From: Geodermatophilus saharensis
GTDB taxonomy: Bacteria > Actinomycetota > Actinomycetes > Mycobacteriales > Geodermatophilaceae
Assembly (NCBI RefSeq): GCF_900188205.1
Contig: NZ_FZOH01000010.1
Span: 147,481 to 211,480 of the forward strand
Direction: 5' to 3'
Length of the DNA: 64,000 nucleotides
In this document: in pieces, positions 5,529 to 48,372 of the stretch
How positions within the stretch are numbered: position 1 is the first letter of the stretch
How the letters are laid out: each line of letters begins with the position of its first letter
Made by a program: the position numbers and the translations under genes
Notes under the pieces: model-generated
Told to the model about the DNA's origin: nothing
Databases searched by the model: none
Seen by the model: the letters and a program-made list of their open reading frames with translations, nothing else

Positions 5529-5580
5529 GGACAGGCGCTCCGTCCGCGGCTGCGGAGCCACCGTGTGGTGGGATGCGCTG

Positions 5581-7062: not shown

Positions 7063-7082
7063 CGCGGACTGGCCGGTCCGTC

Positions 7083-7955: not shown

Positions 7956-8034
7956 CGAGGCAGTCTGCCGCCGACCGCGCGACCGCGCCCGGCCCGCGGA
8001 GGCTCTCCGCGCGGCCTCGGAGCTCCGTGAGCCG

Positions 8035-10095: not shown

Positions 10096-10113
10096 CCCCG
10101 GCCTGGTGAGAGG

Positions 10114-10809: not shown

Positions 10810-10820
10810 GGCAGCGGAGG

Positions 10821-32088: not shown

Positions 32089-32404
32089 CCCGACAGCCTC
32101 ACACACCGGCGGTGCGACGTCGTCCGCCCGGCGGTCCCCGAGCCGCCCACCGGGTGCTGGTGCGGTGAGGGCAGGGTTCGAGGCGTGGAGTGAGCGGATA
32201 AATGCGCGCAGTAAGCAGTTCGGTCCCTCGGGCGCAGGACGGTGATCGCTCGCCGGTCACGTGTCACACAATTGAGTCGGACGACTTTCGTTTCCTGCCG
32301 TCCGGGGGTTACCGTCGTCCGGCCGGTTGAACACAACAGTTCCCGGCGCAACGGGGAATCTCACCACCGAGGTGCCTGCTCGGTGTCTGCACGGGGGTGC
32401 TGCC
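32089..32404. other. Divergent intergenic region, less GC-rich than its surroundings
   Basis: A 316-nt gap between a minus-strand GT4 and a plus-strand sugar transferase. Its middle (about 32190-32360) is visibly richer in A and T, with AGCGGATAAATG, CACACAATTGAGTC and GGTTGAACACAACAG. GTTG-aaca-CAAC at about 32325-32336 is a short inverted repeat. This is a likely regulatory region for the plus-strand gene. No certain -10 was identified. Confidence 0.35.
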
Positions 32405-33910
32405 ATGTCCCTGCTCGAGGTCGGTGACGGACGCGTCCGGCACGATCCCACTCCGGTCGGCCGACGGTGGCTCTGGCTGGCCCCTGGCCTGCGCGGCGAG
32501 GGCACGGCCGTCCGCCGGGCGTGGCGCGCCTCCTACGTCCGCCGCCTCGTGGTCCTCGACGCGCTCGCGGCGTTCGTGGCCGCTGCGGTGGGCTCGCTCG
32601 TCCCCGAGGGCGGCCCGCTCGTCGGGCTGTCGGCGAGCGCGGCCGTCGTCCTCGCGCTGCCGGTCGTCTGGCTCGGCGCGATGCTCGCCGCCCGCGCCTA
32701 CGAGCAGCGCTACCTCTGGGTCGGCCCGGAGGAGTTCCGCCGGGTCTTCTCCGCCGCCGCGCTCCTGCTCGCCACGGTCGGCACCGTCTCCTGGGCCTTC
32801 AAGCTCGAGGTCGCGCGCAGCTTCGTCGTCGTCGCCCTGCCGCTGGCGACCCTCCTGACGCTGGCCACCCGCCTGGTGCTGCGCCTGCGGCTGTACTCCG
32901 GGCGTGCCCACGGCCGGCACGTGCAGACGACGGTCCTCGTCGGTCACCGCAGCGGCGTCGCCGCCCTCAGCGCGCAGCTGGAGCGCGAGGCCCGCCACGG
33001 CTACCGCGTCATCGGCTGCTGCCTGCCGCTGTCGGCCGGCGACCGCGACGTCTTCGACGGCCTGCCCGTCCTCGGCAGCCTCGACGAGGTCGCCGACGTC
33101 GTCCGCCGGTTCGAGGTCGACACCGTGGCCGTGCTGCCCTCGCCGGAGCTCGAGGGGGCGCGGCTGCGCAAGCTCGGCTGGGACCTCGAGGACACCGAGG
33201 CCGAGCTGCTCCTCGCCCCCGCGGTCACCGAGGTCGCCGGTCCCCGCGTCCACGTCCGTCCCGTCGCCGGGCTGCCGCTGGTGCACGTCGAGCGCCCGGA
33301 GTTCACCGGCGCGCGCCGCATCGTGAAGGACGTCGTCGACCGCACGGCGGCCGGCCTGGGCATCCTGCTGCTCTCGCCGCTGCTCGTCGCGCTCGCCCTG
33401 CTGGTCAAGGTCACCAGCTCCGGTCCGGTGTTCTTCCGCCACGAGCGGATCGGCCGGGACGGCCGGCCGTTCCAGGTGCTGAAGTTCCGCAGCATGGTCG
33501 TCGACGCCGACAAGGCCGAGACGGACCTGCACGGCCGCAGCGAGGGCAACGCCGTCCAGTTCAAGATGCGCCGCGACCCGCGGGTCACCCGGATCGGCGC
33601 CGTCATGCGCCGGTACTCCCTCGACGAGCTGCCCCAGCTGTTCAACGTCCTGGGCGGCAGCATGAGCCTCGTGGGCCCGCGCCCGCACGTCACCCGCGAG
33701 GTCGAGCAGTACGGCTTCGACATGCGCCGCCGCCTGCTGGTCAAGCCGGGCATCACCGGCCTGTGGCAGGTCAGCGGCCGCTCGGACCTGTCGTGGGACG
33801 ACGCGGTCCGGCTCGACGTGCACTACGTCGAGAACTGGTCGCTGACCTTCGACGCGATGATCCTGTGGAAGACCGCCGGTGCCGTCCTCCGCGGCTCCGG
33901 GGCGTACTGA
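32405..33910 (+). CDS. Polyprenyl-phosphate sugar-1-phosphate transferase (WbaP/WcaJ-like), first copy
   Basis: A 501-aa initiating enzyme that moves a hexose-1-phosphate from UDP-sugar to undecaprenyl phosphate. The N-terminal part has four to five membrane helices and a Rossmann-like (CoA-binding-3 type) domain around VLVGHRSGVAALSAQLER and GYRVIGCCLPL. The catalytic domain begins at RRIVKDVVDRTAAG, with the family blocks FFRHERIGRDGRPFQVLKF, RSMVVDADKAETDL, RRYSLDELPQLFNVL, MSLVGPRPHV and KPGITGLWQVSGRSDLSW. All expected Asp/Glu and Arg residues are visible. ATG 32405 is the likely start; an in-frame GTG at 32327 would add an unusual leader. Confidence 0.88.
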   Translation: MSLLEVGDGRVRHDPTPVGRRWLWLAPGLRGEGTAVRRAWRASYVRRLVVLDALAAFVAAAVGSLVPEGGPLVGLSASAAVVLALPVVWLGAMLAARAYEQRYLWVGPEEFRRVFSAAALLLATVGTVSWAFKLEVARSFVVVALPLATLLTLATRLVLRLRLYSGRAHGRHVQTTVLVGHRSGVAALSAQLEREARHGYRVIGCCLPLSAGDRDVFDGLPVLGSLDEVADVVRRFEVDTVAVLPSPELEGARLRKLGWDLEDTEAELLLAPAVTEVAGPRVHVRPVAGLPLVHVERPEFTGARRIVKDVVDRTAAGLGILLLSPLLVALALLVKVTSSGPVFFRHERIGRDGRPFQVLKFRSMVVDADKAETDLHGRSEGNAVQFKMRRDPRVTRIGAVMRRYSLDELPQLFNVLGGSMSLVGPRPHVTREVEQYGFDMRRRLLVKPGITGLWQVSGRSDLSWDDAVRLDVHYVENWSLTFDAMILWKTAGAVLRGSGAY

Positions 33911-33952
33911 TCCGCACACCGAGTGCCACTCCCGACAATGACGCGGCGTGAC

Positions 33953-33998
33953 CATTCCACTGCACATTCGTGCGTCATTCCCGTCCGAGTGAGGAATG
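33953..33998. promoter_or_regulatory. CATTCC/GGAATG repeat set upstream of the second sugar transferase
   Basis: CATTCC occurs at 33953-33958 and 33976-33981, and its complement GGAATG at 33993-33998, all within the 170-nt gap before the gene at 34081. The last two form an inverted repeat with an 11-nt spacer. The gap is less GC-rich than the genes around it, which suits a promoter/operator region. Confidence 0.3.
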
Positions 33999-34080
33999 GC
34001 CGGGACAAATGGCGACGGCACCGTCCCGATGACACGATCGCCTGACGTGCCGAGACGCCGGCGCGGGTGATGGAGGAGTG

Positions 34081-35547
34081 ATGGTCGACGCCACGGGGGG
34101 CGACGTCGCATCCGGGCGGATCGTGCGCAGGCCGTCCGCCGTCCGGGTGCGGATCGCGCCGGGGGACGCTGCGCACATCCGGCCCGTCGGGATCGTGCGC
34201 CGCCAGCCCTGGTGGCTGCGGCGCGGTGTCGGCCCCTACCTGGTGCTCACCGACGTCCTGGCCTTCGCCGTCGCCACGGTGATCACGACGCCGGGCTCGC
34301 CGATCGCGCACGGTCTCGCGCTCGGGTTCCTGCTCCTCGTCTTCTGGCGCGCCGGCCTGTACCGCTCACGCCTGACCCTCTCGCTGCTCGACGACCTGCC
34401 CTACGTCCTGGCCGCGGTCGCCGTCGCCTGGGCGCTGAAGGTCTCGCTGTTCTCCGTGCTGCCGGGGGTCGACGGGCCGGGGCGGCAGGTGGTGCACCTG
34501 CTGGTGGTGCTGGCGGCCGTCCTGCTGTTCCGGCTGGTGGCCTACCGCGTCGTGCACCTGGCCCGCTGCCGCGGTCTGGTACGCCACCGCACCCTGATCG
34601 TGGGCGCCGGCCCAGTGGGCGTCCGCGTCGCCACCACGCTGCTCGAGCGGCGCAACTACGGCCTGGACCCGATCGGCTTCCTCGACACCGAGTGGCCGGC
34701 CGGATCGGCACCCCTGCTCCCAGTCCCGCTGCTTGGCCGCTACCACCGGCTCGGGCAGGCGATCCAGCAGCTCGGGGTGCGCGACGTCGTCGTGGCCTAC
34801 GGCGGCGTCGACGAGGACGAGCTCGTCGACATCCTGCGCACCTGCGACCGCCTCGACGTCGAGGTCTTCGTCGTCCCCCGGCTCTTCGAGCTGCACCACA
34901 CCAACCGTTACACCGACGAGATCTGGGGCATCCCGCTGATCCGGCGGCGGCGCTCGGTCTACCGGAGCCCCTGGTGGCGGGCCAAGCGGCTGGTGGACGT
35001 CGCCGTCTCGGCGCTGTCGCTGCTGCTGCTCGTGCCGGTCCTGGCCGCCTGCGCGCTCGCCGTCCGGCTCGAGGGCGGCCCGGGGATCATCTTCCGCCAG
35101 GAGCGGGTGGGCCTGGACGGCCGCCCGTTCCAGGTGCTGAAGTTCCGCTCGCTCAAGCCGGTCGACGAGACGGAGTCGCAGACGCAGTGGAACATCAAGC
35201 ACGACGACCGGCTCGGCCCGGTCGGGCGCTTCCTGCGGGCGACCTCCCTCGACGAGCTGCCCCAGCTGTGGAACATCCTCCGCGGGGACATGAGCCTGGT
35301 CGGTCCGCGTCCCGAACGGCCGCACTTCGTCGAGCAGTTCTCCGCGCACATCCCCCGCTACACCGCGCGGCACCGGGTGCCGGCCGGCCTGACCGGCTGG
35401 GCGCAGTCGCACGGCCTGCGCGGTGACACCTCCATCGAGGACCGCGCCCGCTTCGACAACTACTACATCGAGAACTGGTCACCGTGGCTCGACATGAAGA
35501 TCGTCCTGAAGACCGTGGGACAGGTGCTGCGACGGCAGGGCGGGTGA
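34081..35547 (+). CDS. Polyprenyl-phosphate sugar-1-phosphate transferase (WcaJ-like), second copy
   Basis: A 488-aa paralogue of the preceding transferase with helices at about 45-170, a Rossmann-like part (HRTLIVGAGPVGVRVATTLL, VVVAYGGVDEDELVDILR) and the catalytic domain: FRQERVGLDGRPFQVLKF, RSLKPVDETESQTQW, RATSLDELPQLWNIL, MSLVGPRPERPHFVEQF and PAGLTGWAQSHGLRGDTS. It differs from its neighbour in the loop after KFRS, which suggests a different donor sugar. TGGAGGAG just before ATG 34081 is a strong Shine-Dalgarno; GTG 34078 is the alternative. Confidence 0.88.
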   Translation: MVDATGGDVASGRIVRRPSAVRVRIAPGDAAHIRPVGIVRRQPWWLRRGVGPYLVLTDVLAFAVATVITTPGSPIAHGLALGFLLLVFWRAGLYRSRLTLSLLDDLPYVLAAVAVAWALKVSLFSVLPGVDGPGRQVVHLLVVLAAVLLFRLVAYRVVHLARCRGLVRHRTLIVGAGPVGVRVATTLLERRNYGLDPIGFLDTEWPAGSAPLLPVPLLGRYHRLGQAIQQLGVRDVVVAYGGVDEDELVDILRTCDRLDVEVFVVPRLFELHHTNRYTDEIWGIPLIRRRRSVYRSPWWRAKRLVDVAVSALSLLLLVPVLAACALAVRLEGGPGIIFRQERVGLDGRPFQVLKFRSLKPVDETESQTQWNIKHDDRLGPVGRFLRATSLDELPQLWNILRGDMSLVGPRPERPHFVEQFSAHIPRYTARHRVPAGLTGWAQSHGLRGDTSIEDRARFDNYYIENWSPWLDMKIVLKTVGQVLRRQGG

Positions 35548-35768
35548 CCGGCGATGCCGCCCTGCGTTGGCTGTTCGCCCTCGTGGCGATCGCCGTCCTC
35601 AGCGCCTTCGCGCTGCTGCTCGTGACGGGGCAGTACTACAACGAGGGCCCCGTGCTCGTCCGGGTCGCCGAGGACCGCGGGCTGCACCAGGGCGACGTGT
35701 TCGTCCTGACCGGCTGGGCGGCCGGCGTGCTCTCCCTGCTGGGGCTCCTGACGGTGCGGCGGCGCTGA
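35544..35768 (+). CDS. Small two-helix membrane protein (74 aa)
   Basis: Starts at GTG 35544, overlapping the stop of the sugar transferase as GTGA. ALRWLFALVAIAVLSAFALL and FVLTGWAAGVLSLLGLL are two hydrophobic helices joined by a loop with GQYYNEGPVLVRVAEDRGLHQG, the end of which is RRR. No family recognised. Tight coupling to the WcaJ-like enzyme suggests an accessory role at the membrane. Confidence 0.68.
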   Translation: MTGDAALRWLFALVAIAVLSAFALLLVTGQYYNEGPVLVRVAEDRGLHQGDVFVLTGWAAGVLSLLGLLTVRRR

Positions 35769-35783
35769 CCGGCGGGCGGGGCC

Positions 35784-35915
35784 TCAGGCGGCCGCGCGGT
35801 GCACCAGCGTCCGGGCCGGAGCGATCCCGCACGCGGCCGCGGCCGCCAGCAGCCAGCCGTGCTCGGCGACGAAGACGTGCAGCGCCAGCCAGGTCGAGCC
35901 GAGGAGGAACGTCAC
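35784..35915 (-). CDS. Possible very small hydrophobic protein (43 aa)
   Basis: Frame from GTG 35915: TFLLGSTWLALHVFVAEHGW, then an alanine run and a basic end (ARTLVHRAAA). CAGGA lies 8 nt before the start as a Shine-Dalgarno. It fills the gap between the convergent 74-aa gene and the LCP gene. The length is short and the evidence is limited to hydrophobicity and the RBS. Confidence 0.35.
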   Translation of the reverse strand: MTFLLGSTWLALHVFVAEHGWLLAAAAACGIAPARTLVHRAAA

Positions 35916-35991
35916 GGCCGCATCCTGGGCGACCGGCGACGCCGGGCCGGCGGACCGGTGAGGTGTCCGTGACGGGTGGGGGAGGACGGCC

Positions 35992-37092
35992 TCAGCGGGG
36001 CACGTCGGGGAGGGCCTGACTGCCGAACTCGTCGGCGTTCTGCGACAGCGAGTCGTTGCGCAGGTAGGACCACATCCGCTCGCCGGTGACCTCGTCGAGG
36101 TAGACGACGCTCGCCGAGCCCTCGGTGCCGGTGCCCAGCACCGGCGCGGTGAAGGAGTCGACGTCCTCGGGGCGCAGGTCGCGCAGCGAGTACGCCAGGC
36201 CCAGCAGGTCGGCGTCGCCGAGGGTGTCGTCGACGGCGACGGCGCTGGTGACCGCGAGCAGCGCGGCGTCGAGCCGGCCGGGGTCGCTGAGCGCGCCGGA
36301 GGTGAACAGCTGGCCGAAGACCGCCTCGAGGTACTGCTGCTGGCGCCGGACGCGGTCGAAGTCGCCGCCCTGCAGGCCGTAACGCTGCCCCAGGTACCAG
36401 CGTGCCTGGTCGCCGTCGAGGTGGTTGACGCCGGCCTCGAAGGTGTACGGGCCCCACGTGGTGGTCTCGGCGACGACGACGTCGACCCCGCCGAGGGCGT
36501 CGGTGACCTCGACGATGCCCTCGAAGTCGATCGCGACGTAGTGGTCGATGCGGACCCCGGTCACCTGCTCGACGGTCGCGATCAGCAGCGACGGGCCGCC
36601 GTAGGCGTAGGCGGCGTTGATCTTGTCCTGGCCGTGGCCGGGGATCTCGACCCACGAGTCGCGCGGGATGGACACCAGCTGCGCGTGCCGCCGGTCGCCG
36701 GAGAACCGCGCGATCATGATCGCGTCCGAGCGGCCGCCTTCGGCGATGCCCTCGTCCGCGGTGCCGCGGCTGTCGGTGCCCACGAGCAGGAAGGTGACCG
36801 GTGCCTCGCCGGCGGCCTCGGCGGGCGTGGCGGGCGCCGGCCGGGCCTCCTCGTCGAGGTCGGCGAACACGTCGGTGACGCGGTCGATGTTCCCGGCGTA
36901 GCGGTCGGTGAGGTACCACAGGCCCCCACCGACCACCGCCACCCCGACGACGAGCAGCACGGCCAGCGCGGTGAGGAACCGGCGCAGGCCCCGGCGCCGG
37001 CCCGAGCGGGCGCGGTCCCGGTCGGCCGGTGTCCCCGCCGGGGCGTCCGCGTCGGCCGGTGGGCCCTCGAGCCCGACGTCGTGCCTGGTCAT
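35992..37092 (-). CDS. LytR-CpsA-Psr (LCP) family glycopolymer transferase
   Basis: A 366-aa type II membrane protein: basic cytoplasmic N-terminus, one helix (FLTALAVLLVVGVAVVGGG) and an outside LCP domain. Family residues are visible in LLVGTDSRG, GGRSDAIMIARFSGD, LVSIPRDSWVEIPG and DKINAAYAYGG, which hold the Asp and Arg that bind the polyprenyl pyrophosphate. LCP enzymes ligate teichoic acids, capsule or arabinogalactan to peptidoglycan. In this island it should attach the made polymer to the wall. ATG 37092 is chosen; GTG 37107 is possible. Confidence 0.88.
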   Translation of the reverse strand: MTRHDVGLEGPPADADAPAGTPADRDRARSGRRRGLRRFLTALAVLLVVGVAVVGGGLWYLTDRYAGNIDRVTDVFADLDEEARPAPATPAEAAGEAPVTFLLVGTDSRGTADEGIAEGGRSDAIMIARFSGDRRHAQLVSIPRDSWVEIPGHGQDKINAAYAYGGPSLLIATVEQVTGVRIDHYVAIDFEGIVEVTDALGGVDVVVAETTTWGPYTFEAGVNHLDGDQARWYLGQRYGLQGGDFDRVRRQQQYLEAVFGQLFTSGALSDPGRLDAALLAVTSAVAVDDTLGDADLLGLAYSLRDLRPEDVDSFTAPVLGTGTEGSASVVYLDEVTGERMWSYLRNDSLSQNADEFGSQALPDVPR

Positions 37093-37137
37093 GGCGACCC
37101 CGTCCACCCGCGTCGTCGTCCCAGGATGTCCAGGTGA

Positions 37138-39068
<1,931 letters not shown>

Positions 39069-39110
39069 GAGGCGTTCCGCCCGGCCCTCCGGTCGGGCAC
39101 CATGCACCGC

Positions 39111-39257
39111 GTGTCCCTGGTCCCGCCGGCCGAGCCCCCGGGCCCGGGCGCGCGGCGGCGCTGGCACCGGCACCGGTTCCGCTGGGTCGGGGAGGACGCC
39201 TTCAGCGGCGCCAGCCTCTACGCCTGCCGGTGCGGTGTCGTGCGGCCCGCGCCCTGA
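39111..39257 (+). CDS. Small CxC protein (48 aa)
   Basis: Frame from GTG 39111 with a basic middle (ARRRWHRHRFRWVGEDAF) and SGASLYACRCGVVRPAP at the end. The single C-R-C pair could bind metal. A CACCAT box ends 7 nt before this GTG, matching the leaderless pattern seen at other genes here. An ATG nine nt upstream is in frame but lies inside the box. It is between rmlD and ugd on the same strand. No family is assigned, but composition and start signal favour a real gene. Confidence 0.5.
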   Translation: MSLVPPAEPPGPGARRRWHRHRFRWVGEDAFSGASLYACRCGVVRPAP

Positions 39258-39347
39258 CCGCGGTCACCCGACCCGGCCTTCCCCGGGCGCCCCGTCCGGT
39301 GTCGTGGTGCACTTCGGTGTCGAAGTGTCGGGCACGGAGGAGCGGGG

Positions 39348-40670
39348 ATGCGCATCTCGGTCATCGGCTGCGGTTACCTGGGCGCCGTCCACGCAGCGTC
39401 GATGGTCGAGCTCGGCCACGAGGTGGTCGGCATCGACGTCGACCAGCGCAAGGTGGCCGCGCTATGTGCGGGCCGGTCACCGTTCTACGAGCCCGGCTTC
39501 GACGAGCTGCTCCAGCACTCGCTGGGGTCGGGACGGCTGTCGTTCTCGACCGACGTCGCCGACGCGGCGGGGTCACGGGTCCACTTCCTGTGCGTCGGCA
39601 CCCCGCAGAAGCACGGTGAGTACGCCGCGGACATGCGGTTCGTGGAGGCGGCCGTCGAGTCGCTGCTGGAGGTGCTGCAGCCAGGCGATCTGGTAGCCGG
39701 CAAGTCGACGGTCCCGGTGGGGACGGCCGCGCAGCTGGCCGAGCTGGTGGCCGGCAAGGTCCCCGGCGCGCTGGTGGCCTGGAACCCGGAGTTCCTCCGC
39801 GAGGGGTTCGCCGTCCGCGACACCCTCCACCCCGACCGGCTGGTCTACGGCCTGCCCGCTGACCCTGCCGACGCGGCCACCGCCGAGGCCCTCCTCGACG
39901 AGGTCTACGCCCCGATCGTGGCCCGCGGGACGCCGAAGGTGACCACCGACCACGCCACCGCCGAGATGGTGAAGACCGCCGCCAACTCCTTCCTGGCCAC
40001 CAAGATCTCCTTCATCAACGCCATGGCGGAGCTGTGCGAGGCCACCGGTGCCGACGTCAAGCAGCTGGCCGACGCGATCGGCTACGACGAGCGGATCGGG
40101 CGGCGGTTCCTCAACGCCGGCCTCGGGTTCGGCGGCGGTTGCCTGCCCAAGGACATCCGCGCGTTCATGGCCCGCGCCGGCGAGCTGGGTGCCGACCAGG
40201 CGCTGACGTTCCTGCGCGAGGTCGACAACATCAACATGCGCCGCCGCATCCGCATGGTCGAGCTGGCCCGCGAGGTGCTCGACGGCTCGCTGCTGGGCAA
40301 GCGGGTGGCGGTGCTGGGGGCGGCGTTCAAGCCCGACTCCGACGACATCCGCGACTCCCCGGCGCTCAACGTCGCCGCGCAGCTGCAGCTGCAGGGCGCG
40401 GTGGTGTGCGTGACCGATCCCGCCGCGGTGGACAACAGCCGCCGGGAGTGGCCGCACCTGGACTTCGCCGCGACACCGGAGGAGGCCGCCGAGCGCGCCG
40501 ACGCCGTCCTGGTGCTCACCGAGTGGCGGCAGTACCGCGAGCTCGATCCGGTGGCCTTCGGCGCGGTGGTGCGCCAGAAGCGGGTGCTCGACGGCCGCAA
40601 CGCCCTGGACCGGGAGGCCTGGACCGCCGCCGGTTGGACCTACCGCGCCCTGGGCCGCCGGGCGAGCTGA
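39348..40670 (+). CDS. ugd: UDP-glucose 6-dehydrogenase
   Basis: A 440-aa enzyme: ISVIGCGYLGAVHAASMVEL is the N-terminal NAD loop, FLCVGTPQ and TVPVGTAAQLAELV follow, then AWNPEFLREGFAVRD with the catalytic-site Glu. The active cysteine is in GFGGGCLPKDIRAF. The C-terminal half has VAVLGAAFKPDSDDIRDSPA. It makes UDP-glucuronate, a precursor of acidic surface polysaccharides. A strong GGAGGAG lies before ATG 39348, in contrast to the leaderless neighbours. A hairpin terminator follows. Confidence 0.94.
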   Translation: MRISVIGCGYLGAVHAASMVELGHEVVGIDVDQRKVAALCAGRSPFYEPGFDELLQHSLGSGRLSFSTDVADAAGSRVHFLCVGTPQKHGEYAADMRFVEAAVESLLEVLQPGDLVAGKSTVPVGTAAQLAELVAGKVPGALVAWNPEFLREGFAVRDTLHPDRLVYGLPADPADAATAEALLDEVYAPIVARGTPKVTTDHATAEMVKTAANSFLATKISFINAMAELCEATGADVKQLADAIGYDERIGRRFLNAGLGFGGGCLPKDIRAFMARAGELGADQALTFLREVDNINMRRRIRMVELAREVLDGSLLGKRVAVLGAAFKPDSDDIRDSPALNVAAQLQLQGAVVCVTDPAAVDNSRREWPHLDFAATPEEAAERADAVLVLTEWRQYRELDPVAFGAVVRQKRVLDGRNALDREAWTAAGWTYRALGRRAS

Positions 40671-40677
40671 CGAAGGA

Positions 40678-40728
40678 CCCCCGTGCCCCCCACTGCTCGC
40701 AGGCTCGCAGCGGGACCCTGCACGGGGG
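40678..40728 (+). terminator. Hairpin downstream of ugd
   Basis: CCCCCGTGC (40678-40686) pairs with GCACGGGGG (40720-40728), and the long loop holds a second small hairpin around CTGCTCGCAGG. It lies just after the ugd stop and well before galE. No T-run is present. Confidence 0.5.
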
Positions 40729-40778
40729 CCGTTCCAGCGCCTCACCTGACCGGCCGGGGGCCGGGGAGCGGCGGAGCC

Positions 40779-40784
40779 TAGGCT
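40779..40784 (+). promoter_or_regulatory. -10 box TAGGCT of a leaderless galE transcript
   Basis: TAGGCT ends 6 nt before GTG 40791 and fits TAnnnT; no Shine-Dalgarno lies between. Transcription is expected to begin at or next to the start codon. Confidence 0.5.
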
Positions 40785-40790
40785 CGGTCG

Positions 40791-41774
40791 GTGACCTGGC
40801 TCGTGACCGGCGGCGCCGGCTACATCGGTTCCCACGTCGTCGCGGCCATGCGGGCGGCCGGGGAGTCCGTCGTCGTCCTCGACGACCTGTCCACCGGCGA
40901 CGCCGACCGCGTCCCCGGAACCCCGCTCGTCGTCGGCAGCGTGCTCGACGGCGACCTGGTGGCGCGGACCCTGCGCGAGCACGGCGTCACCGGGGTGGTG
41001 CACGTCGCGGCGAAGAAGCAGGTCGAGGAGTCGGTGCGCCTCCCGCTGCTGTACTACCGGGAGAACGTCGAGGGTCTGCGGGTGCTCCTCGAGCAGGCCG
41101 TGACGGCCGGCGTGGCCGACCTGGTCTTCTCCTCCAGCGCGGCGGTCTACGGCATGCCCGACACCGACCTGGTCGGCGAGGACACCGAGTGCCGGCCGCT
41201 GAACCCCTACGGCACCACCAAGCTCGTCGGCGAGCGGATGATCGCCGAGGTCGCCGCGGCCACCGGCCTGCGCTACGCCAACCTGCGCTACTTCAACGTC
41301 GCCGGCACCGCCGACCCCGCGCTCACCGACCGCGGCGCGTCCAACCTGGTGCCGATGGTCTTCCAGCGGCTGGCCGACCGGCAGGCCCCGCTCGTGTTCG
41401 GTGACACCTATCCGACGCCGGACGGCACCTGCATCCGCGACTTCGTGCACGTCGCCGACATCGCCACCGCGCACGTCGCCGCCGCCCGGGCGCTGGCCGG
41501 GGGGAGCGTGCGCGCGCTGACGGCGAACATCGGCCGCGGCGAGGGCGTCTCGGTGCGGCAGGTGGTCGACACCGTCCGCGCGGTCACCCGGACGGCGGGC
41601 GAGGCGTGGGCCGAGCCGGTCGTCGTCCCGCCGCGCGCCGGCGACCCCGCCCGGGTGGTCGCCGCGGCCGACACCATCCGCGCCGTCCTCGGGTGGGAGG
41701 CCCGCCACGACCTGCACGACATGGTCGCCTCGGCGTGGGCCGGCTGGACGGCGACCCGCGCCGCGGCGGTCTGA
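40791..41774 (+). CDS. galE: UDP-glucose 4-epimerase
   Basis: A 327-aa epimerase: WLVTGGAGYIGSHVVAAM, VVLDDLSTGDADRV, VVHVAAKKQVEESVRLPLLY and the catalytic FSSSAAVYG Ser plus NPYGTTKLVGERMI Tyr-Lys. LRYFNVAGTADPALTDRG and GTCIRDFVHVADIATAHV are standard. It interconverts UDP-Glc and UDP-Gal, or the GlcNAc/GalNAc pair, which the PelF-like enzyme next door might need. Convergent with the putative glycosidase, 7 nt between stops. Confidence 0.92.
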   Translation: MTWLVTGGAGYIGSHVVAAMRAAGESVVVLDDLSTGDADRVPGTPLVVGSVLDGDLVARTLREHGVTGVVHVAAKKQVEESVRLPLLYYRENVEGLRVLLEQAVTAGVADLVFSSSAAVYGMPDTDLVGEDTECRPLNPYGTTKLVGERMIAEVAAATGLRYANLRYFNVAGTADPALTDRGASNLVPMVFQRLADRQAPLVFGDTYPTPDGTCIRDFVHVADIATAHVAAARALAGGSVRALTANIGRGEGVSVRQVVDTVRAVTRTAGEAWAEPVVVPPRAGDPARVVAAADTIRAVLGWEARHDLHDMVASAWAGWTATRAAAV

Positions 41775-41781
41775 GCGGCGC

Positions 41782-42858
41782 TCAGCGCCGGTAGACGACG
41801 CCCTCGTGCGGCTGCAGGGTCACCTTCGCCGGCGCGGGCTCCCCGTCGGCGGACCGCAGCCCCGGCGGCACGGACAGGGTGACCTTGCGCCGCTTGCTCT
41901 CGTTGAGGTTCACGCCCGCCCAGCCGTCGGTGAACTCCCGGGACCAGGCGTGGCCCTTCTGCTGCGGGCCGCCGACGGGGGTGCCGAGGTCCCACTCCAG
42001 CTCCGGGCGGAACGGCGTCCCGCTGTACCCGTCGTGGTCGGTGGCCGAGAAGCAGACCTGCTCGCCGGCGCCGAAGACGAGCACTGCCGCCAGCCCGTAG
42101 AGGAAGTTCGGGTGGTCGTCGCGGCCGTCGGTCGCCGTCCGCACGATGGTGATCCCGGGGCCGCCGAGCTCCTCCATCTGGGCGGTCGCGCTGGCGGGGT
42201 CGAGGTACCGGTCGGGTCCCCAGGCGAGGAAGACCTCCTCGAAGCCGCCGCCGTAGGCGGCGTGCCGGGCCCAGCGGCCCGGGTCGCGCCGTGACTCGGC
42301 GATGTTCGGCACGAGGACCTTGCCCATGCCGTTGAGGCGCTTGCCGGCCTCGGGCACGAACTGGTCCATCGTGCGGCGCAGGTCGGCCATCGTCCGGCCG
42401 CCCTCCAGCGGCGGCCGCAGCCCGTAGTAGTCGTCGAAGACGTCGTTGTCGGCCATGACGCCGTCCCAGGGGGTGTCCTCGAGGAAGTCGGCGACGTTGT
42501 CGCACCACCGCTCGCGGTAGTCCGGCTCCCACACCGCCATCTGCCAGTGCCCCGGGTAGGTGGCCCACTGGATGCGGCTGCCGTCCTCGCGGTGGGCGAA
42601 CCACTCCTCGCCGGCCTCCTCGGCCTCCTCGAGGCTGACCCCGGAGGTGAAGACCGGCCCCTGCTCGAAGTCGCGCACCGAGGACAGGCACTTGTAGGCC
42701 AGCACCGTCATGTCCGGCCGCTGCTCCTTGAGCCGGCCGGCGGCCTCGGTCTCCCAGGGCTGCAGGATCGCGGCCTGGTAGTGCTCGACGGCGAAGTCGA
42801 GCTGCTCGTCCGACAGGGGGTCCTGGTAGCGGATCCAGGCGCCACGACGGGTGACCAT
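41782..42858 (-). CDS. Putative glycosidase (GHL15-type)
   Basis: A 358-aa (beta/alpha)8-barrel-like protein without a signal peptide. AWIRYQDPLSDEQLDFAVEH, AILQPWETEAAGRLKEQRPD and VLAYKCLSSVRDFEQG are the early strands. WDGVMADNDVFDDYYGLRPP carries acidic residues in a barrel-end position, as in the hypothetical glycoside hydrolase family GHL15. Late segments FLYGLAAVLVFGAGEQ and AWSREFTDGWAGVNLNES follow. No signal suggests a cytoplasmic role. As last gene of the Pel-like operon it may stand in for the PelA hydrolase. Family assignment is from memory of motifs. Confidence 0.68.
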   Translation of the reverse strand: MVTRRGAWIRYQDPLSDEQLDFAVEHYQAAILQPWETEAAGRLKEQRPDMTVLAYKCLSSVRDFEQGPVFTSGVSLEEAEEAGEEWFAHREDGSRIQWATYPGHWQMAVWEPDYRERWCDNVADFLEDTPWDGVMADNDVFDDYYGLRPPLEGGRTMADLRRTMDQFVPEAGKRLNGMGKVLVPNIAESRRDPGRWARHAAYGGGFEEVFLAWGPDRYLDPASATAQMEELGGPGITIVRTATDGRDDHPNFLYGLAAVLVFGAGEQVCFSATDHDGYSGTPFRPELEWDLGTPVGGPQQKGHAWSREFTDGWAGVNLNESKRRKVTLSVPPGLRSADGEPAPAKVTLQPHEGVVYRR

Positions 42859-42898
42859 GGGCCCAGCCTGTCACGGCCCCGGAGCGCCGCCGCCGGGG

Positions 42899-44617
42899 TC
42901 AGCCGACCGTGAGGGTGTGCCGCAGGTCGTTGCGGCCGGTGGCCGGGTCCCACAGCCCCTGGTTGGCCAGCCGGACGGCGTAGGCCGGGTCGCCGGCCAG
43001 CGACGGCGCGTCGTCGGGCAGGGCGAGGGCGAGCGGCCAGGCGCCCGCCGTGGTGGGCACCGGCACGTCGACGCGGAAGGTGCGCGTCGTCCCCGGCGCC
43101 AGCGACCGCACGTCGACGGCGACCGGGACGCCCACCGCCTGCGGGCCCGAGCCGAACACCAGCCGCACCGGCCGGTCGGACAGCGGGGCGGCGTAGCCGT
43201 CGTTGGCCAGCGTGAGCTCGACCTGCACGGTCTGGCCCGGGCGCGCCGTGGCGGGGAAGGCGCCCGACACCAGGCGCAGCCGGTAGCCCAGCGACCGCGC
43301 GGCCGTGCCGAGGCCGGCCTGGCCCCAGGAGTCGAGGACGCCGCGGTGGAAGTCGGCGTTGAGGAAGCTCCAGTGGTAGCGGGCCAGCTCGGTCGCGGCG
43401 GTGCTCCACTGCGACCGGGTGCCGTTGGTGCCGCAGGTCTCGCCGCCCACCGGCACCCGGGCCGACGCGGCGGCCAGCCAGGTGCGCTCCTCCGCCGTGG
43501 CGAAGGTGCCCATGTCGGTGTCGCTGGCCAGGAAGCAGTCGTTGTGCACGCCCACCCGGCGGGCGTCGGCGTCGTCCACCAGCCGCGAGACGATCGACGG
43601 GTAGCGCACCTGCACCCAGATGTCGGGCGACGTCGCGTCCAGGAGCGCGTCGAGGACCTGCCCGCGGCGGGCCCAGTCGGCGTCGGTGAGCGCCCACGGC
43701 CGGGCCGGGTCGGAGGCGTAGGAGTCGGAGTAGTACCACTCGCCCCAGCGCCCCACGAAGCCCGCCTGCAGCACCAGGACGACGTCGGAGGCGGCGTTGA
43801 GCACCGGTGCGAGCTGGCGGACGTGGCCCACCGCCCGGGCCGGCGGCGCGTCGCGGCCGTCGTCGGGGGAGTAGGCGAACCGGACGACGAGCTTGACGCC
43901 GGCCGCGCGGGCGGTGGCGAGGTCCGCGGCGACCTGGTCGAGGAACCGCTGGTCGATCGTGTCCCGGTCGACCAGCCCGCCCAGGTAGTAGACGCGGTAG
44001 ACGACGGTCACGGCCTCGGCGGTGCGCCACGTGCGCAGCGTGGTGACGTCCAGCGGCGTGTGCGCGCTGCCGTCGGGGGACCAGCGGGACTCGGTGTAGT
44101 GCGTGAAGCCGCGCTCGGGGTTGGCGACGACCTCGTCGCTGGCCGCGTAGGAGACGGCGGTCAGCGGGCCCGACGCGGTGCCGGTCGCGGTGGCGGTGCC
44201 GGTCGTCGTGGTGCCGGTCGTCGTGGTGCCGGCGGTCGTGCTCGTCGTCGAGGCCGGTGCCGGTGCCGTCGTCGGCGTGCTGCTCACCGGCGCGGTGGTC
44301 CTCGGCGGGGTGGTGGTCGGTGCGGTGGTGGTCGGCGTCGGGGGGCGGACGCGCCCGGCGGTCAGGACGACGCCGGCGGTGCGGGCCGCGGTGCGGGCGC
44401 AGCTCGACCAGTCGCTGCAGCGGGCGGCGGCGCGCGCGGCGGCCGCCGACGTCGTCGCGCCGTCCGCCGGGGTGCCGGAGGGGGCCACGGTCACCAGCCC
44501 GGCCAGGAGGAGGGCGCCGAGCAGCAGCGCGGGCCAGCGGAGGTGCCGGCCGCGCTCCCGCGGGGGCCGCGGGGTGCGGGACGGTGCCGAGGAGTCCGGG
44601 GACGTGTGCCTGCCCAC
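42899..44617 (-). CDS. Membrane-anchored or secreted DUF4874/DUF4832-type protein with Thr-rich linker
   Basis: A 572-aa protein. One helix (WPALLLGALLLAGLVTVA, about residues 26-45) is a signal anchor. Residues 85-165 are a Thr/Pro/Ala-rich linker suited to crossing the wall. VVANPERGFTHYTESRW begins the DUF4874-type barrel, with LVVRFAYSPDDGRDAPP and LVLQAGFVGRWGEWYYSDSY. FLNADFHRGVLDSWGQAGL and YRLRLVSGAFPATARPGQ begin the DUF4832-type beta domain. The conserved GEW and acidic residues look like a glycoside-hydrolase clan fold. GTG 44617 is chosen for its GGGAGAGG Shine-Dalgarno. Second to last gene of the Pel-like operon. Confidence 0.75.
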   Translation of the reverse strand: MGRHTSPDSSAPSRTPRPPRERGRHLRWPALLLGALLLAGLVTVAPSGTPADGATTSAAAARAAARCSDWSSCARTAARTAGVVLTAGRVRPPTPTTTAPTTTPPRTTAPVSSTPTTAPAPASTTSTTAGTTTTGTTTTGTATATGTASGPLTAVSYAASDEVVANPERGFTHYTESRWSPDGSAHTPLDVTTLRTWRTAEAVTVVYRVYYLGGLVDRDTIDQRFLDQVAADLATARAAGVKLVVRFAYSPDDGRDAPPARAVGHVRQLAPVLNAASDVVLVLQAGFVGRWGEWYYSDSYASDPARPWALTDADWARRGQVLDALLDATSPDIWVQVRYPSIVSRLVDDADARRVGVHNDCFLASDTDMGTFATAEERTWLAAASARVPVGGETCGTNGTRSQWSTAATELARYHWSFLNADFHRGVLDSWGQAGLGTAARSLGYRLRLVSGAFPATARPGQTVQVELTLANDGYAAPLSDRPVRLVFGSGPQAVGVPVAVDVRSLAPGTTRTFRVDVPVPTTAGAWPLALALPDDAPSLAGDPAYAVRLANQGLWDPATGRNDLRHTLTVG

Positions 44618-44811
44618 GCTGGGCCTCTCCCGCCGCGGGGACCGCGGCTCGCCAGGGGACGACCGGCCACCCTCCCTGGGGAGCGGAACGGGTCCGGGCA
44701 CGTCCGTGTGCGAGGAGTAGTCAAGCAACCACGAAGCGCTGCGTCCATCGATCGTGCGCAGCCGTCACACCCGTCACACGGGGACGGGGGACGGGGACCG
44801 CTGTCGCGTCC
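44618..44811. other. Intergenic gap within the Pel-like operon
   Basis: A 194-nt gap between the 77-aa gene and the DUF4874/DUF4832-type gene. It holds two tandem CCGTCACAC copies (44762-44779). On the minus strand TTGCTTGACTACTCC around 44710-44728 could be part of a promoter for the downstream gene. Nothing else was identified. Confidence 0.3.
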
Positions 44812-45045
44812 TCAGACCTCGAGCGGGGCGGCGGCCCGGTGCGGGACCGGCCGCGGTGCACGGGAGGGCAGCGCCGAGGCCTCGCGCCACCACTCGTCGG
44901 GGTCGGTCCACGGCCGCACCGGCTGTCGGGGGAGGGGCGGGGTCCAGGCCGGCGTCGGGCTCGCGGGCGGCACGGCGGGGCGGCGGCGGGCGGCCAGCAG
45001 CCAGGGGAGGACCAGCAGTGCGACGAGCAGGGACAGGGAGGCCAC
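44812..45045 (-). CDS. Small N-terminally anchored Pro-rich protein (77 aa)
   Basis: From GTG 45045: MASLSLLVALLVLPWLLAAR is one hydrophobic helix with a short outside/inside tail RRRPAVPPASPTPAW and WTDPDEWWREASALPSRAP. The tryptophan-rich WTDPDEWW stretch is distinctive. No named family. It lies between pelF and the DUF4874 gene, downstream of two overlapping hairpins that could limit its transcription. It may be a small subunit of the membrane complex. Confidence 0.6.
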   Translation of the reverse strand: MASLSLLVALLVLPWLLAARRRPAVPPASPTPAWTPPLPRQPVRPWTDPDEWWREASALPSRAPRPVPHRAAAPLEV

Positions 45046-45066
45046 GGCGACTCCATCGGCACGTCC

Positions 45067-45110
45067 TGCGCGGTCCTTGACCGCGCACCCGTCGGCGCTG
45101 ACGGGTGCGC
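45067..45110 (-). promoter_or_regulatory. Two mutually exclusive hairpins between pelF and the 77-aa gene
   Basis: TGCGCGGTC (45067-45075) pairs with GACCGCGCA (45079-45087), a 9-bp stem. GCGCACCCGTC (45083-45093) pairs with GACGGGTGCGC (45100-45110), an 11-bp stem. The two stems share 45083-45087, so they cannot form at once. They fill the 70-nt gap just after the pelF stop. This may be an attenuator, a partial terminator or an RNA-processing site. Confidence 0.55.
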
Positions 45111-45115
45111 GGATC

Positions 45116-46852
45116 CTAGGTGGCCGGACGCAGCCCGGGGAAGCCGGTGCGCGGCCTGCGGGCGCGCGGGACGACCTCGGTGCGCACCGGCGCCTCGGCC
45201 AGGACCGGCTCGACGACCGGCTCGAGGACCGGTGCGGCGCCGGCGCCGGGACCGCGGACCGCGGCCTGCTCCCGCGAGGGGAGGCCGCCGAGCTCGCGGT
45301 AGAGGTCGTTGTAGGCCCGCATCGCGTCGCTCAGCTGGAAGAAGTCCTCGACCCGGCCGCGGGCGTTGCGGGCGAACTCCGCGTACAGGGCGGGGTCCCT
45401 CATCACCCGGGTCAGCCCCTCGGTCAGCTGCTCGGCCATGTTGGGCGACTTGTGCAGCGGGTCGACGAGGATGCCGGCCGGCCCCCAGGTGTGCCCGGCC
45501 TCGGTGGTCAACGGGTCGTCGACGAGCTGGGCCATGCCACCGACCTCGGTGCCCACGGTCGGGATGCCGGCGGTCATCGCCTCGAGCACGACGATGGGCT
45601 GGCCCTCGTTGTAGCTCGGGAGGACGAGCAGGTCGTAGCTGCCGATCTCGGCCCGCACGTCGACCACCCCGCGGAAGGTGACGTGGTCGGACAGCCCCAG
45701 CCGCTCGACCTTCTCCACGCACGCCGCGTAGTACTCGGGGAAGTGGTCGGTGGGCCCCAGCGCGTCCAGGTGGAAGTCGGTCACCCCGCGCTGCAGCAGC
45801 ATGTGCACGGTGTCGAGCAGGTCGAGCATGCCCTTGATGGGGACCAGCCGGGCGATGTAGGCCAGCCGCCAGGTGCGCTCGGCCGGCCCGCGGACGATCT
45901 CCTCGACGGCCCGCAGGCGCTGCTGGTAGGCCGGCTCGACGGCCGCCGGGACCATCCCGTTGGGGATGACCACGCTCTTCTCCACCGGCGCGCCCAGGTC
46001 GGCGGCCTCGGTGATCGCCTTGGGGTAGAGGTAGGTGATGACCTCCGCGCTGGGGTAGCAGAACCGCCCCATCTCGATCCACCACGTCATCCACGCCCGC
46101 TCCCGGGCCGGGACGTCGAAGGTGCGCCAGTCGGTGGCGGTGACCGGGAGCGCCATGTCCCGGTCGAGCATCAGGTTGACCGTGTCGCGGACGTAGAGGT
46201 TGTGCTCGGTCAGCAGGAAGCGGCCGCCGTTCTGCCGGGCCGCCGCCGCGCCCATGAGCGAGGCGTACCCGGTGGTGTGGGCGTGGTAGACCCGGGCGCG
46301 CGGCAGGTCGTTGCCGAGCACGGCGCAGGCGAGGGAGAAGAACTCGCGCATGAGCCAGAAGGTGTCCACCAGCGACAGCCCCAGGCCGGTGCAGCGCTGC
46401 TGGAGCACCTGCATGAACTCCTGGGTGCCGAGCAGGGCCCAGAGCGGGTACCGCCGCGTGCGGGGGTTCATCCCCTCGTCGTAGAGCGACCACACCGGCT
46501 CGGTCTCGCCGGCGACGATGCCCTCCAGCGCGTCGAACACCCGGTGCGCCAGCGCGGTCCGCGCCCGGCCGCGCATGCGCAGGTCGCCCGGCTTGAGGTC
46601 GCGGAAGTCCTCCTTGTGCTCGTCCATGCTCAGGTAGAGCGGGTGCACCCAGCGCACGTTGGACGGGACGCCGTAGAGGTCCTCGGTGGGGCTGCTGGAG
46701 TCCCAGGTGATGTGGATGATCCCGAAGGTCAGGTCCGGGTTCTCCACCACGATGTCGTGCACGACCGCGGAGACCCCACCCTTGAGGTACGGGTAGGTCG
46801 ACTCCATGACGATCGCGACGTCGACGTCTTCGTGGGCCTGTCGGGTGTCCAT
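45116..46852 (-). CDS. pelF: PelF-like exopolysaccharide glycosyltransferase (GT4)
   Basis: A 578-aa GT-B transferase. Residues 1-200 hold the PelF-specific segment: DVAIVMESTYPYLKGGVSAV, TFGIIHITWDSS and ARVYHAHTTGYASLMGAAAA. The C-terminal half has IPNGMVPAAVEPAYQ, LAYIARLVPIKGMLDLLDTV, FRGVVDVRAEIGSYDLLVLP and SYNEGQPIVVLEAMTAG with E-x7-E. PelF uses UDP-GlcNAc/GalNAc to make the Pel polymer. The tail beyond residue 520 is Pro/Val/Glu-rich and extra. It is directly downstream of a PelG-like gene. No PelD or PelE is seen. Confidence 0.86.
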   Translation of the reverse strand: MDTRQAHEDVDVAIVMESTYPYLKGGVSAVVHDIVVENPDLTFGIIHITWDSSSPTEDLYGVPSNVRWVHPLYLSMDEHKEDFRDLKPGDLRMRGRARTALAHRVFDALEGIVAGETEPVWSLYDEGMNPRTRRYPLWALLGTQEFMQVLQQRCTGLGLSLVDTFWLMREFFSLACAVLGNDLPRARVYHAHTTGYASLMGAAAARQNGGRFLLTEHNLYVRDTVNLMLDRDMALPVTATDWRTFDVPARERAWMTWWIEMGRFCYPSAEVITYLYPKAITEAADLGAPVEKSVVIPNGMVPAAVEPAYQQRLRAVEEIVRGPAERTWRLAYIARLVPIKGMLDLLDTVHMLLQRGVTDFHLDALGPTDHFPEYYAACVEKVERLGLSDHVTFRGVVDVRAEIGSYDLLVLPSYNEGQPIVVLEAMTAGIPTVGTEVGGMAQLVDDPLTTEAGHTWGPAGILVDPLHKSPNMAEQLTEGLTRVMRDPALYAEFARNARGRVEDFFQLSDAMRAYNDLYRELGGLPSREQAAVRGPGAGAAPVLEPVVEPVLAEAPVRTEVVPRARRPRTGFPGLRPAT

Positions 46853-46929
46853 CCGGACGGGTCTCCTCGTGCTCGGGCTCGGTGCGCGGAGGGGCGGGGG
46901 GAGGGAGCGGGCGCGCGGGGCGCCCTCGC

Positions 46930-48372
46930 TCACCAGGAGGTGGCGTGCCGCCAGAAGAGGCTGTACTCGGGCCGGCCCCAGTGCCGGGTGCAGTCGCGCA
47001 CCGCGAGGGCCAGCAGCAGCAGCTCGACGCCGGCGAGGGCCAGGTAGACCGTCGTGCCGGACGGCAGCAGCGCGAACGCCGCGACGACGGCGGTCAGGTG
47101 CGCGGCGCCGATGACCTGGGCGACCCGCTGCTGGCCGACGTAGTCGAGCTTGTAGGAGACGACCGTCGTCATCATGAAGGCCCAGGAGGCCACGGCGACC
47201 GCGGCCGCGAGCGGGGCCGACCCGCGGTCCCACAGCACGACGCCGCCGGTGACCACGAGGGCGAGCGCGGCGCCGACGACGCCGGTCTTCACCACCCCGG
47301 ACAGGATCGTGAGGGTCAGCCGGGACGAGTGGCGGTGCAGCCGCTCGAGCGGCTCGTCCTCCATCGCCGACCGCATGGTGGCGACCTCCCGGTCGAAGCG
47401 CGGCGCGAAGAGGACGAAGTAGGCGTTGTAGGCCAGGATCGCCGGCAGCAGGGCGAGGAAGACGACGTCGACGGCGAAGTCGCGGCCAGCGGCGAGCAGG
47501 AAGACGAACTTGTCCGCCCACAGGACCGCACCCAGCAGCAGGCCACGCACCAGGTCGGCGGCGACGTCGCGGCGGTCGAGGACCAGCGGGTCGGCCAGCT
47601 GCCGCACGTGGCGGCGCAGCGGGACGAGCAGCACGAGGATGCCGGCCAGGGGCGGCAGTGCCCAGACCGTGGGCGCGAGGAACAGGGCGACGGCGTAGGC
47701 GGTCCAGGCAGCGGCCCACAGCCCCCGGTGGTCGGGCCGGTTGGTGATCACCAGCAGCTGCACGAACAGCAGGTGCAGGACGGTGAGCACGAGGTAGGCG
47801 CCGAGGACCTGCAGCGGCCAGTCCAGCACCAGCTGCACGGGGACGGCGAAGAGCGCGACCACCGACAGCGAGCGCAGCGCGATCAGCGGCCACGCCCGGC
47901 AGAAGCTGGCCAGCAGGGCGTCGCCGTCCTCGCGGTGCAGCGTGTCGCCGATGCCCCGGTAGAGCGGCATGCACACCGACTGGCTCAGCCACGGCACGGT
48001 CATCGACGACGCCAGCACCACGCTGGTCAGGCCGACACCGCCGATGCGGGCGCTGCTGATCTCGGTGTCGACCAGCGGGAAGACCGTGGTCAGCAGGAGC
48101 ACCGGCGTCAGGTGGAGGACCAGCTGGCCGGCCGTGTACAGCGGCCCCCGGCGGCTGGTGCTCGGCCAGACGAGCGCCACGGCCCCCAGCAGCAGGACGG
48201 CGACGACGGTGGTGATGCCCGCGACGGCGCCGCGGTCGGACAGGGAGGGCAGCAACAGGGTGGCGCCCAGCAGCGCCGCGACGACCAGCACCCCGCCTGC
48301 GGGCGTGGTCCACCGGCGCTCGGGGAGCCGGTCGTGCCGGGTGTGCGGGCGCGCGGGTGTGGTGTCGAGCAC
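46930..48372 (-). CDS. pelG: PelG-like polytopic membrane protein
   Basis: A 480-aa protein with about 12 helices, the right size and place for PelG, the inner-membrane transport partner of PelF. Seen are TPVLLLTTVFPLVDTEISSA after helix 3, VLHLLFVQLLVITNRPDH, ADLVRGLLLGAVLWADKFVF and LALLPAILAYNAYFVLFAPR, and the pre-helix loop FDREVATMRSAMEDEPLERL, which resembles PelG. GTG 48372 is preceded by AGGGGG at 7 nt. First gene of the five-gene minus-strand unit. The similarity to PelG is more by size, topology and partner than by clear motifs. Confidence 0.74.
   Translation of the reverse strand: MLDTTPARPHTRHDRLPERRWTTPAGGVLVVAALLGATLLLPSLSDRGAVAGITTVVAVLLLGAVALVWPSTSRRGPLYTAGQLVLHLTPVLLLTTVFPLVDTEISSARIGGVGLTSVVLASSMTVPWLSQSVCMPLYRGIGDTLHREDGDALLASFCRAWPLIALRSLSVVALFAVPVQLVLDWPLQVLGAYLVLTVLHLLFVQLLVITNRPDHRGLWAAAWTAYAVALFLAPTVWALPPLAGILVLLVPLRRHVRQLADPLVLDRRDVAADLVRGLLLGAVLWADKFVFLLAAGRDFAVDVVFLALLPAILAYNAYFVLFAPRFDREVATMRSAMEDEPLERLHRHSSRLTLTILSGVVKTGVVGAALALVVTGGVVLWDRGSAPLAAAVAVASWAFMMTTVVSYKLDYVGQQRVAQVIGAAHLTAVVAAFALLPSGTTVYLALAGVELLLLALAVRDCTRHWGRPEYSLFWRHATSW

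What the first reader, a model, noticed from the sequence alone, without database searches (positions are those of the whole stretch)
41782..48372. Five-gene Pel-like exopolysaccharide unit in an actinobacterium, without PelD/PelE
The sequence shows a PelG-sized 12-helix protein, a PelF-like GT4, a 77-aa membrane protein, a DUF4874/DUF4832-type barrel protein on a Thr-rich stalk and a GHL15-type putative glycosidase, all on one strand. Known Pel systems use PelD (c-di-GMP receptor) and a PelA deacetylase/hydrolase. Here both seem absent and two unrelated glycosidase-like proteins take their place. It may be an undescribed Pel variant with a different polymer and control.
Basis: partly seen in the sequence, partly recalled or inferred. 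Interest (0 to 1): 0.75.

Follow-up and report, generated by a model that had tools for sequence, protein, structure and literature searches.

The report
Divergent Pel-type sugar-polymer export module
An actinobacterium carries a stripped-down, divergent version of the machinery that makes the sticky biofilm polymer Pel, paired in its relatives with a sugar-cutting enzyme that appears to stay inside the cell, which suggests a minimal route to such polymers without the usual control parts.

Summary
The five minus-strand frames exist. PelF is certain (NCBIfam 208 bits, cut-off 100). The membrane protein matches no PelG model, but its family is a remote PelG homologue: profile-profile score 41.4 against 11 true PelGs, controls at most 27.0, with a MOP-flippase fold. 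The conserved unit is a three-gene core, PelG-like–PelF–GHL15, neighbours in 20 of 20 other loci (Arthrobacter, Pseudarthrobacter, Kocuria, Kineococcus, Piscicoccus, one odd label, two unnamed; one decayed copy not counted). GHL15 shows no signal peptide by eye in 21 of 21. Facultative neighbours are GalE (4 of 21) and a probably secreted protein: DUF4832 type (3 of 21) or another ~500-aa family (6 of 21). The 77-aa frame is not conserved. DUF4832 is not new to Pel: a streptococcal one breaks Pel aggregates, and Gram-positive loci with only pelF and pelG have been listed before. I read it as a divergent, minimal PelF/PelG synthase-exporter making an alpha-GalNAc-type polymer, with a probably cytosolic glycosidase as constant partner. 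Polymer, activities and regulation are inferred.

The parts
46930..48372 (-). PelG-like 480-aa MOP-fold membrane protein, modelled with two helices ahead of a 12-helix core
   Evidence: No Pfam/NCBIfam hit; AF2 pLDDT 84, Foldseek MATE/WzxE/MurJ; hhalign to 11 true PelGs score 41.4 against controls at most 27.0
45116..46852 (-). PelF, GT4 glycosyltransferase
   Evidence: NF038011 208.3 bits, cut-off 100; R335, K340, E416, E424 at least 95% conserved over 45 rows, some genes twice
44812..45045 (-). 77-aa frame with one hydrophobic stretch; existence as a gene unproven
   Evidence: No family, no tblastn hit in 18 of 18 related loci
42899..44617 (-). DUF4874+DUF4832 barrel protein with N-terminal hydrophobic stretch and Thr-rich stalk (by eye); probable extracellular hydrolase (start uncertain, open to 44728)
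   Evidence: Pfam 129.5 and 179.5 bits; DUF4832 proteins also near the module in L009 and L084
41782..42858 (-). GHL15 glycosidase-like protein without visible signal peptide
   Evidence: PF14885 175.5 bits; beside PelF in 20 of 20 other loci; N-termini without hydrophobic signal in 21 of 21; Foldseek GH168
40791..41774 (+). GalE, UDP-sugar 4-epimerase, convergent with GHL15; possible UDP-GalNAc supply, but may belong to the plus-strand RmlB-RmlD-UGDH run
   Evidence: TIGR01179 306.5 bits, cut-off 262.3; galE also directly after GHL15 in L009, L015, L084

Best explanation
A minimal, divergent Pel-type module. GalE (or another epimerase) makes UDP-GalNAc; PelF polymerises it at the inner face of the membrane; the PelG-like MOP-fold protein passes the chain out. 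No PelD, PelE or PelA was recognised nearby, so gating by c-di-GMP through PelD is probably not used, and the two extra N-terminal helices of the PelG-like protein may dock PelF instead. GHL15, which shows no signal peptide, probably cuts or trims polymer on the cytosolic side (clearing stalled chains or setting length). The anchored DUF4874/DUF4832 protein, outside the cell, releases or remodels the polymer. Shown: gene identities, synteny, remote homology of the PelG-like family to PelG, no visible signal on GHL15. Inferred: polymer chemistry, enzyme activities, roles, regulation.
For: PelF equivalog with R335/K340/E416/E424 kept; module PelFs form one clade (0.972) grouping with PelFs beside true PelG. 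PelG-like family against PelG score 41.4; against MurJ 18.0, reversed 16.2 and 18.2, 200 block shuffles maximum 27.0; aligned LWADKFVF motif. Three-gene core in 20 of 20 other loci over several families. GalE adjacent in 4 of 21. DUF4832 in 3 of 21, against 4 of 112 family genomes having any; the DUF4832 protein SIR_1591 breaks Pel aggregates (PMC12345266, passages). In L082, a PelF locus, one protein passes both GH114 and GHL15 cut-offs.
Against: No PelG model, and no HMM of 11 true PelGs, hits the membrane protein; profile-profile probability is only 46.7 and the global mode scores 10.3. GHL15's clear structural matches are GH168 fucanases; its GH191 match (E 5e-6) is hardly better than dextranase or alpha-glucosidase barrels (about 1e-5), and the GH191 enzyme matched, that of T. 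maritima, cleaved no GAG in PMC12054363. The sequence link of GHL15 to GH114 is marginal (20.3 against 15.4 and 17.9 reversed); the GHL15 model is of middling quality (pLDDT 75.7). SIR_1591 deletion had no phenotype. The window's GalE may serve the RmlB-RmlD-UGDH run. No deacetylase seen in the module. 12 of 21 loci show neither secreted protein and 17 of 21 no adjacent galE in the stretch held.
Confidence: 0.6

Rival explanations
1. A synthase-exporter built on the PelF/PelG plan but making a different polymer (another hexosamine, or a fucose/deoxy-sugar or uronic-acid-containing chain), with GHL15 matched to that polymer.
For: GHL15's closest solved structures are GH168 fucanases; PelF is divergent (24-30% identity to five PelFs near PelG-model matches); no deacetylase seen; RmlB, RmlD and UGDH lie next door.
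Against: PelF passes the equivalog cut-off; GalE on the module's strand in L009, L015, L084; DUF4832 link to Pel hydrolysis.
Confidence: 0.25
2. Wzx-like flippase plus GT4 for a lipid-linked glycan or glycolipid; the resemblance to PelG is only the shared MOP superfamily.
For: Foldseek's best hits are MATE, WzxE and MurJ (no PelG appears among the listed hits); no PelG model hits; polyprenyl glycosylphosphotransferase genes are near by.
Against: The family scores far better with PelG than with two MurJ-type proteins of the same genome (41.4 against 18.0), and PelG itself scores only 18.6 with these; the constant partner is PelF.
Confidence: 0.12
3. Five genes that merely sit together in an exopolysaccharide island and do not form one system.
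For: Only 1 of 112 family genomes has the PelG-like gene; the 77-aa frame is unconserved; DUF4832 proteins also occur with no PelF match within 8 kb in two family genomes.
Against: PelG-like, PelF and GHL15 are neighbours in 20 of 20 other loci, in L007 with GHL15 turned round; DUF4832 recurs in L009 and L084.
Confidence: 0.05

Closest known systems
Gram-positive pel operon pelDEA(DA)FG (B. cereus, streptococci, clostridia, bifidobacteria)
   Same: PelF, a PelG homologue, galE and DUF4832 as accessories (PMC7112168)
   Different: No PelD, PelE or PelA deacetylase recognised nearby; PelG too divergent for PF16933; gene order G-F; GHL15 constant
Gram-positive loci with only pelF and pelG recognised, and pel operons in Actinobacteria, of PMC7112194
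   Same: PelF and PelG without the rest (supplement legend and text passages)
   Different: Found there with PelF/PelG HMMs; whether any equals this module could not be checked (supplements not readable); GHL15 not mentioned in the passages seen
S. intermedius SIR_1591 (DUF4832 hydrolase beside pel)
   Same: DUF4832 domain, N-terminal membrane stretch, in a pel locus (PMC12345266, passages)
   Different: P0004 also has a matched DUF4874 domain and a Thr-rich stalk; activity untested
GH168 fucanases; GH191, GH114, GH166 galactosaminidases
   Same: TIM-barrel fold; GHL15 keeps a DGxxxDN motif with D137, and E188, E207, E208, in 17 of 17 aligned proteins
   Different: No visible signal peptide; sequence similarity weak to GH168 and marginal to GH114; substrate unknown
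PelF with Agd3-type deacetylase loci of other Actinomycetota (L082, L083; weaker in L076-L078, L080)
   Same: PelF-like GT4; in L082 also a weak PelG homologue and a GH114 protein that also passes the GHL15 cut-off
   Different: Agd3 deacetylase matches (over cut-off in L082 and L083, below it in L076-L078 and L080); PelFs fall outside the module clade

Membership tests
PelF (NF038011) | score above equivalog cut-off | tested here: met
   208.3 bits against 100
PelG (PF16933) | score above Pfam cut-off | tested here: not met
   No hit; 5 relatives scanned also have none; HMM of 11 true PelGs does not hit it
PelG superfamily (remote homology) | profile similarity beyond MOP-fold controls | tested here: met
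   41.4 against at most 27.0 in controls; probability only 46.7 and global mode 10.3
Pel system | PelD c-di-GMP receptor | tested here: inconclusive
   PF16963 finds none but rang in no control genome; no GGDEF/GAF among 25 window proteins scanned; the genome has 27 GGDEF matches
Pel system | PelA-type hydrolase (GH114 model PF03537) | tested here: not met
   0 in own genome, rang in 2 of 14 controls
Pel system | PelA-type deacetylase in the cluster | tested here: not met
   none among 25 window proteins scanned with Pfam; rest of genome not searched
Pel system | polymer of alpha-1,4 GalNAc/GalN | not testable with these tools
   needs carbohydrate analysis
Pel system | PelE | not tested
   no PelE model was searched by itself; none of the 25 window proteins scanned was named so
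GHL15 (PF14885) | score above cut-off | tested here: met
   175.5 bits against 27
DUF4832 / DUF4874 | scores above cut-offs | tested here: met
   179.5 and 129.5 bits against 29.2 and 30.1

The most novel reading that the evidence does not exclude
A previously unrecognised class of Pel-type synthase in Actinomycetota in which a re-engineered PelG with two extra helices works with PelF alone, without PelD/PelE, and a cytosolic GHL15 glycosidase is an obligate part of synthesis: an intracellular enzyme that edits or terminates the chain before export.
Probability: 0.35. Interest if true: 0.7.

Novelty: new variant of a known kind. Interest (0 to 1): 0.5.

Why it matters
Pel export is thought to need a PelD-PelE-PelF-PelG complex (PMC12345266 passage). 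A conserved PelF/PelG pair without recognised PelD/PelE would show what the minimal translocation unit is and give a simple two-protein target for reconstitution. It extends Pel-type machinery to Arthrobacter, Kocuria and relatives, where PF16933 does not see it (window protein and 5 relatives scanned), and gives GHL15, few of whose members outside the GH168 fucanases have an assigned role as far as I know (recall), a testable substrate.

Tried and rejected
Rejected: five-gene unit (only three are constant); the 77-aa frame as PelE (no homologue found); plain Wzx flippase. Led nowhere: PDB sequence searches with P0001 (two chance-level hits), P0004 (none) and the ~500-aa family (none); promoter/terminator scan, 0 of each; GH114 sequence link of GHL15, marginal; the 11-12-helix proteins beside PelF-like genes in L083 and L081 are not PelG-like (15.4 and 14.1). 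Literature: in the listings of searches (20 of 31 shown; 20 of 614 shown) I saw no paper on this module; supplements were not readable, so the lists behind PMC7112168 and PMC7112194 were not checked, and PMC7112194 does mention Gram-positive loci with only pelF and pelG.

Rows dropped: the decayed copy L086 is not in any count of 20 or 21. L018 (frames broken) and L019 (odd label, frames broken) were left out of alignments A1 and A2 and hence both models. PelF hits spanning under 380 aa, exact duplicates and L001 were left out of the tree. Several tree rows are the same gene fetched twice (at least L033/L084, L034/L085, L022/L047, L023/L046, L021/L049, L020/L051). Some loci end soon after GHL15 (L004 by 83 bases), so absent neighbours there mean not seen. 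The locus search used short peptide patterns and is not exhaustive.

Full report
Observation. Five minus-strand frames lie at 41782-48372 with strong third-position GC. Curated models identify PelF (NF038011 208.3 bits, cut-off 100; DUF3492), DUF4874 plus DUF4832, and GHL15; the 480-aa membrane protein and the 77-aa frame match nothing.

Is the membrane protein PelG? By ordinary models, no: PF16933 finds nothing in this genome, while the same search rings in 1 of 14 control genomes; in a phylum sample 13 of 396 genomes match at E 0.001, 7 over cut-off. The AlphaFold model (17 sequences, pLDDT 84.0, pTM 0.81) has a MOP/MATE/Wzx/MurJ-type fold (best E 5e-4, TM-score by query length 0.30-0.52 for the MOP hits listed), with two helices ahead of a 12-helix core. 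I compared the family profile with 11 true PelGs from actinobacterial genomes and plasmids. hhalign gives score 41.4, P 2e-4, 218 columns in register, probability 46.7. Controls: against two MurJ-type proteins of the same genome 18.0; PelG against these 18.6; reversed profiles 18.2 and 16.2; 200 block shuffles mean 19.4, maximum 27.0. A first comparison with four PelGs was weak (18 columns, E 0.04) and the global mode scores 10.3. An HMM of the 11 PelGs does not find it. I conclude remote homology to PelG, beyond the reach of PF16933.

Is the unit conserved? A pattern-based genome-contig scan gave 18 loci: Arthrobacter, Pseudarthrobacter, Kocuria, Kineococcus, Piscicoccus, and one contig labelled Vibrio cholerae that is probably a contaminant. 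In 18 of 18, PelG-like, PelF and GHL15 are neighbours; none has a tblastn match at E 1e-3 to the 77-aa frame or to P0004. A class-wide sample found the gene in 4 of 394 genomes: the window's own, two more with the three-gene core (G750, G766), and one with remnants (G813). In the window's family 1 of 112 genomes has it. With profiles, counting 21 loci (L002-L019, L084, L085, window): DUF4832 proteins lie near the module in 3 (window, L009, L084; in the last two convergent, after galE), confirmed over the DUF4832 cut-off there; galE is adjacent in 4 (window, L009, L015, L084); a different ~500-aa protein, secreted by the look of its N-terminus and without family, lies just after GHL15 in 6 (L003, L010, L013, L017, L019, L085). 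The other 12 loci show neither protein within the stretch held; some stretches end soon after GHL15.

PelF. A midpoint-rooted tree of 45 rows (some genes twice) puts all 22 module rows (20 distinct genes) in one clade (support 0.972) that groups with PelFs of loci with PelG-model matches; PelF-like proteins of large-genome actinobacteria (Streptomyces-like by size, a guess) and Agd3-linked ones fall outside. The support of the grouping itself and the root were not tested. R335, K340, E416 and E424 are at least 95% conserved; that these match UDP-binding residues of P. aeruginosa PelF is recalled, not tested.

GHL15. The N-termini of 21 of 21 members start directly at the barrel with no hydrophobic signal, judged by eye, so the protein is probably cytosolic; no signal predictor was run and non-classical export is not excluded. 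Its model (pLDDT 75.7) matches GH168 fucanases clearly (E 1e-12); GH191 comes next (E 5e-6) but hardly ahead of dextranases and alpha-glucosidases (about 1e-5). A profile of the family finds GH168 chains weakly, one named 'GHL15 protein'. D137, E188, E207 and E208 are invariant in 17. In the GH191 paper (passages) Asp/Glu pairs are the catalytic or putative active-site residues of GH114, GH135, GH166 and GH191; an environmental GH191 enzyme degrades Pel, while the T. maritima one, which is the structure matched here, cleaved no GAG. In the fucanase FunA, D206 and E264 are critical (PMC7401878, passage). My assignment of D137 and E207 or E208 is by motif position and is inferred. In L082, another actinobacterial PelF locus, one protein passes both the GH114 and GHL15 cut-offs (77.9 and 28.8 bits).

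DUF4832. It is reported as an accessory of streptococcal and clostridial pel loci (PMC7112168, section 6 read). SIR_1591 of S. intermedius has a TIM barrel plus DUF4832 and disrupts Pel aggregates comparably to PelAH, although its deletion had no phenotype (PMC12345266, passages). P0004 is therefore best read as an extracellular hydrolase of this polymer. Homologues (43% identity) also occur in two family genomes with no PelF match within 8 kb.

Missing parts. No GH114 in the genome. PelD_GGDEF was not found, but the search rang in no control. The genome has 27 GGDEF matches, so c-di-GMP signalling probably exists, without a PelD seen here. Among 25 window proteins scanned there is no deacetylase, GAF or GGDEF domain.

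What was known. PMC7112194 (passages) reports pel operons in Actinobacteria and Gram-positive loci with only pelF and pelG recognised; its lists were not readable here. In the listings of eight literature searches (the last two cut short) I saw nothing on a PelF/PelG/GHL15 unit.

Mechanism and verdict. See the best explanation: UDP-GalNAc supply, PelF polymerisation, PelG-like export, cytosolic trimming by GHL15, outside remodelling by the DUF4832 protein. Identities, synteny and remote homology are shown; chemistry and roles are inferred. It is a new variant of a known kind.

Noticed in passing
L082 (G467:C32:1-12087): Another divergent Pel/GAG-type locus: PelF over cut-off, a weak PelG homologue (hhalign 43.6 to PelG), an Agd3-type deacetylase with CBM87 and a GH114 protein that also passes GHL15.
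   Followed up: partly
L083 (G315, same order), 5200-15040: Agd3/CBM87 protein, PelF-like GT4, an 11-helix protein unlike PelG, nucleotidyltransferase, two epimerase-type proteins and a UGDH-type protein in one run.
   Followed up: partly
L076, L077, L078, L080 (large genomes, Streptomyces-like by size only): PelF-like GT4 next to a 675-787-aa protein with weak, sub-cut-off Agd3 deacetylase matches; no PelG HMM hit in these loci.
   Followed up: partly
L019 (record WNZI01000020.1): A contig labelled Vibrio cholerae carries the Arthrobacter-type module with broken frames; probably contamination.
   Followed up: no
L086 (G813:C11): Remnants of the PelG-like gene and a partial GHL15: a decaying copy of the module.
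   Followed up: no
L003:14197-15717 and relatives in L010, L013, L017, L019, L085: ~500-aa family with signal-like N-terminus and no Pfam or PDB match, directly after GHL15; weak profile similarity to GHL15 (hhalign 29.1, E 0.0055, probability 6.6, no matched control).
   Followed up: partly
window 29868-41774: Exopolysaccharide island: two GT4s, two polyprenyl glycosylphosphotransferases, LytR-CpsA-Psr, RmlB, RmlD, UGDH-type dehydrogenase, GalE.
   Followed up: partly
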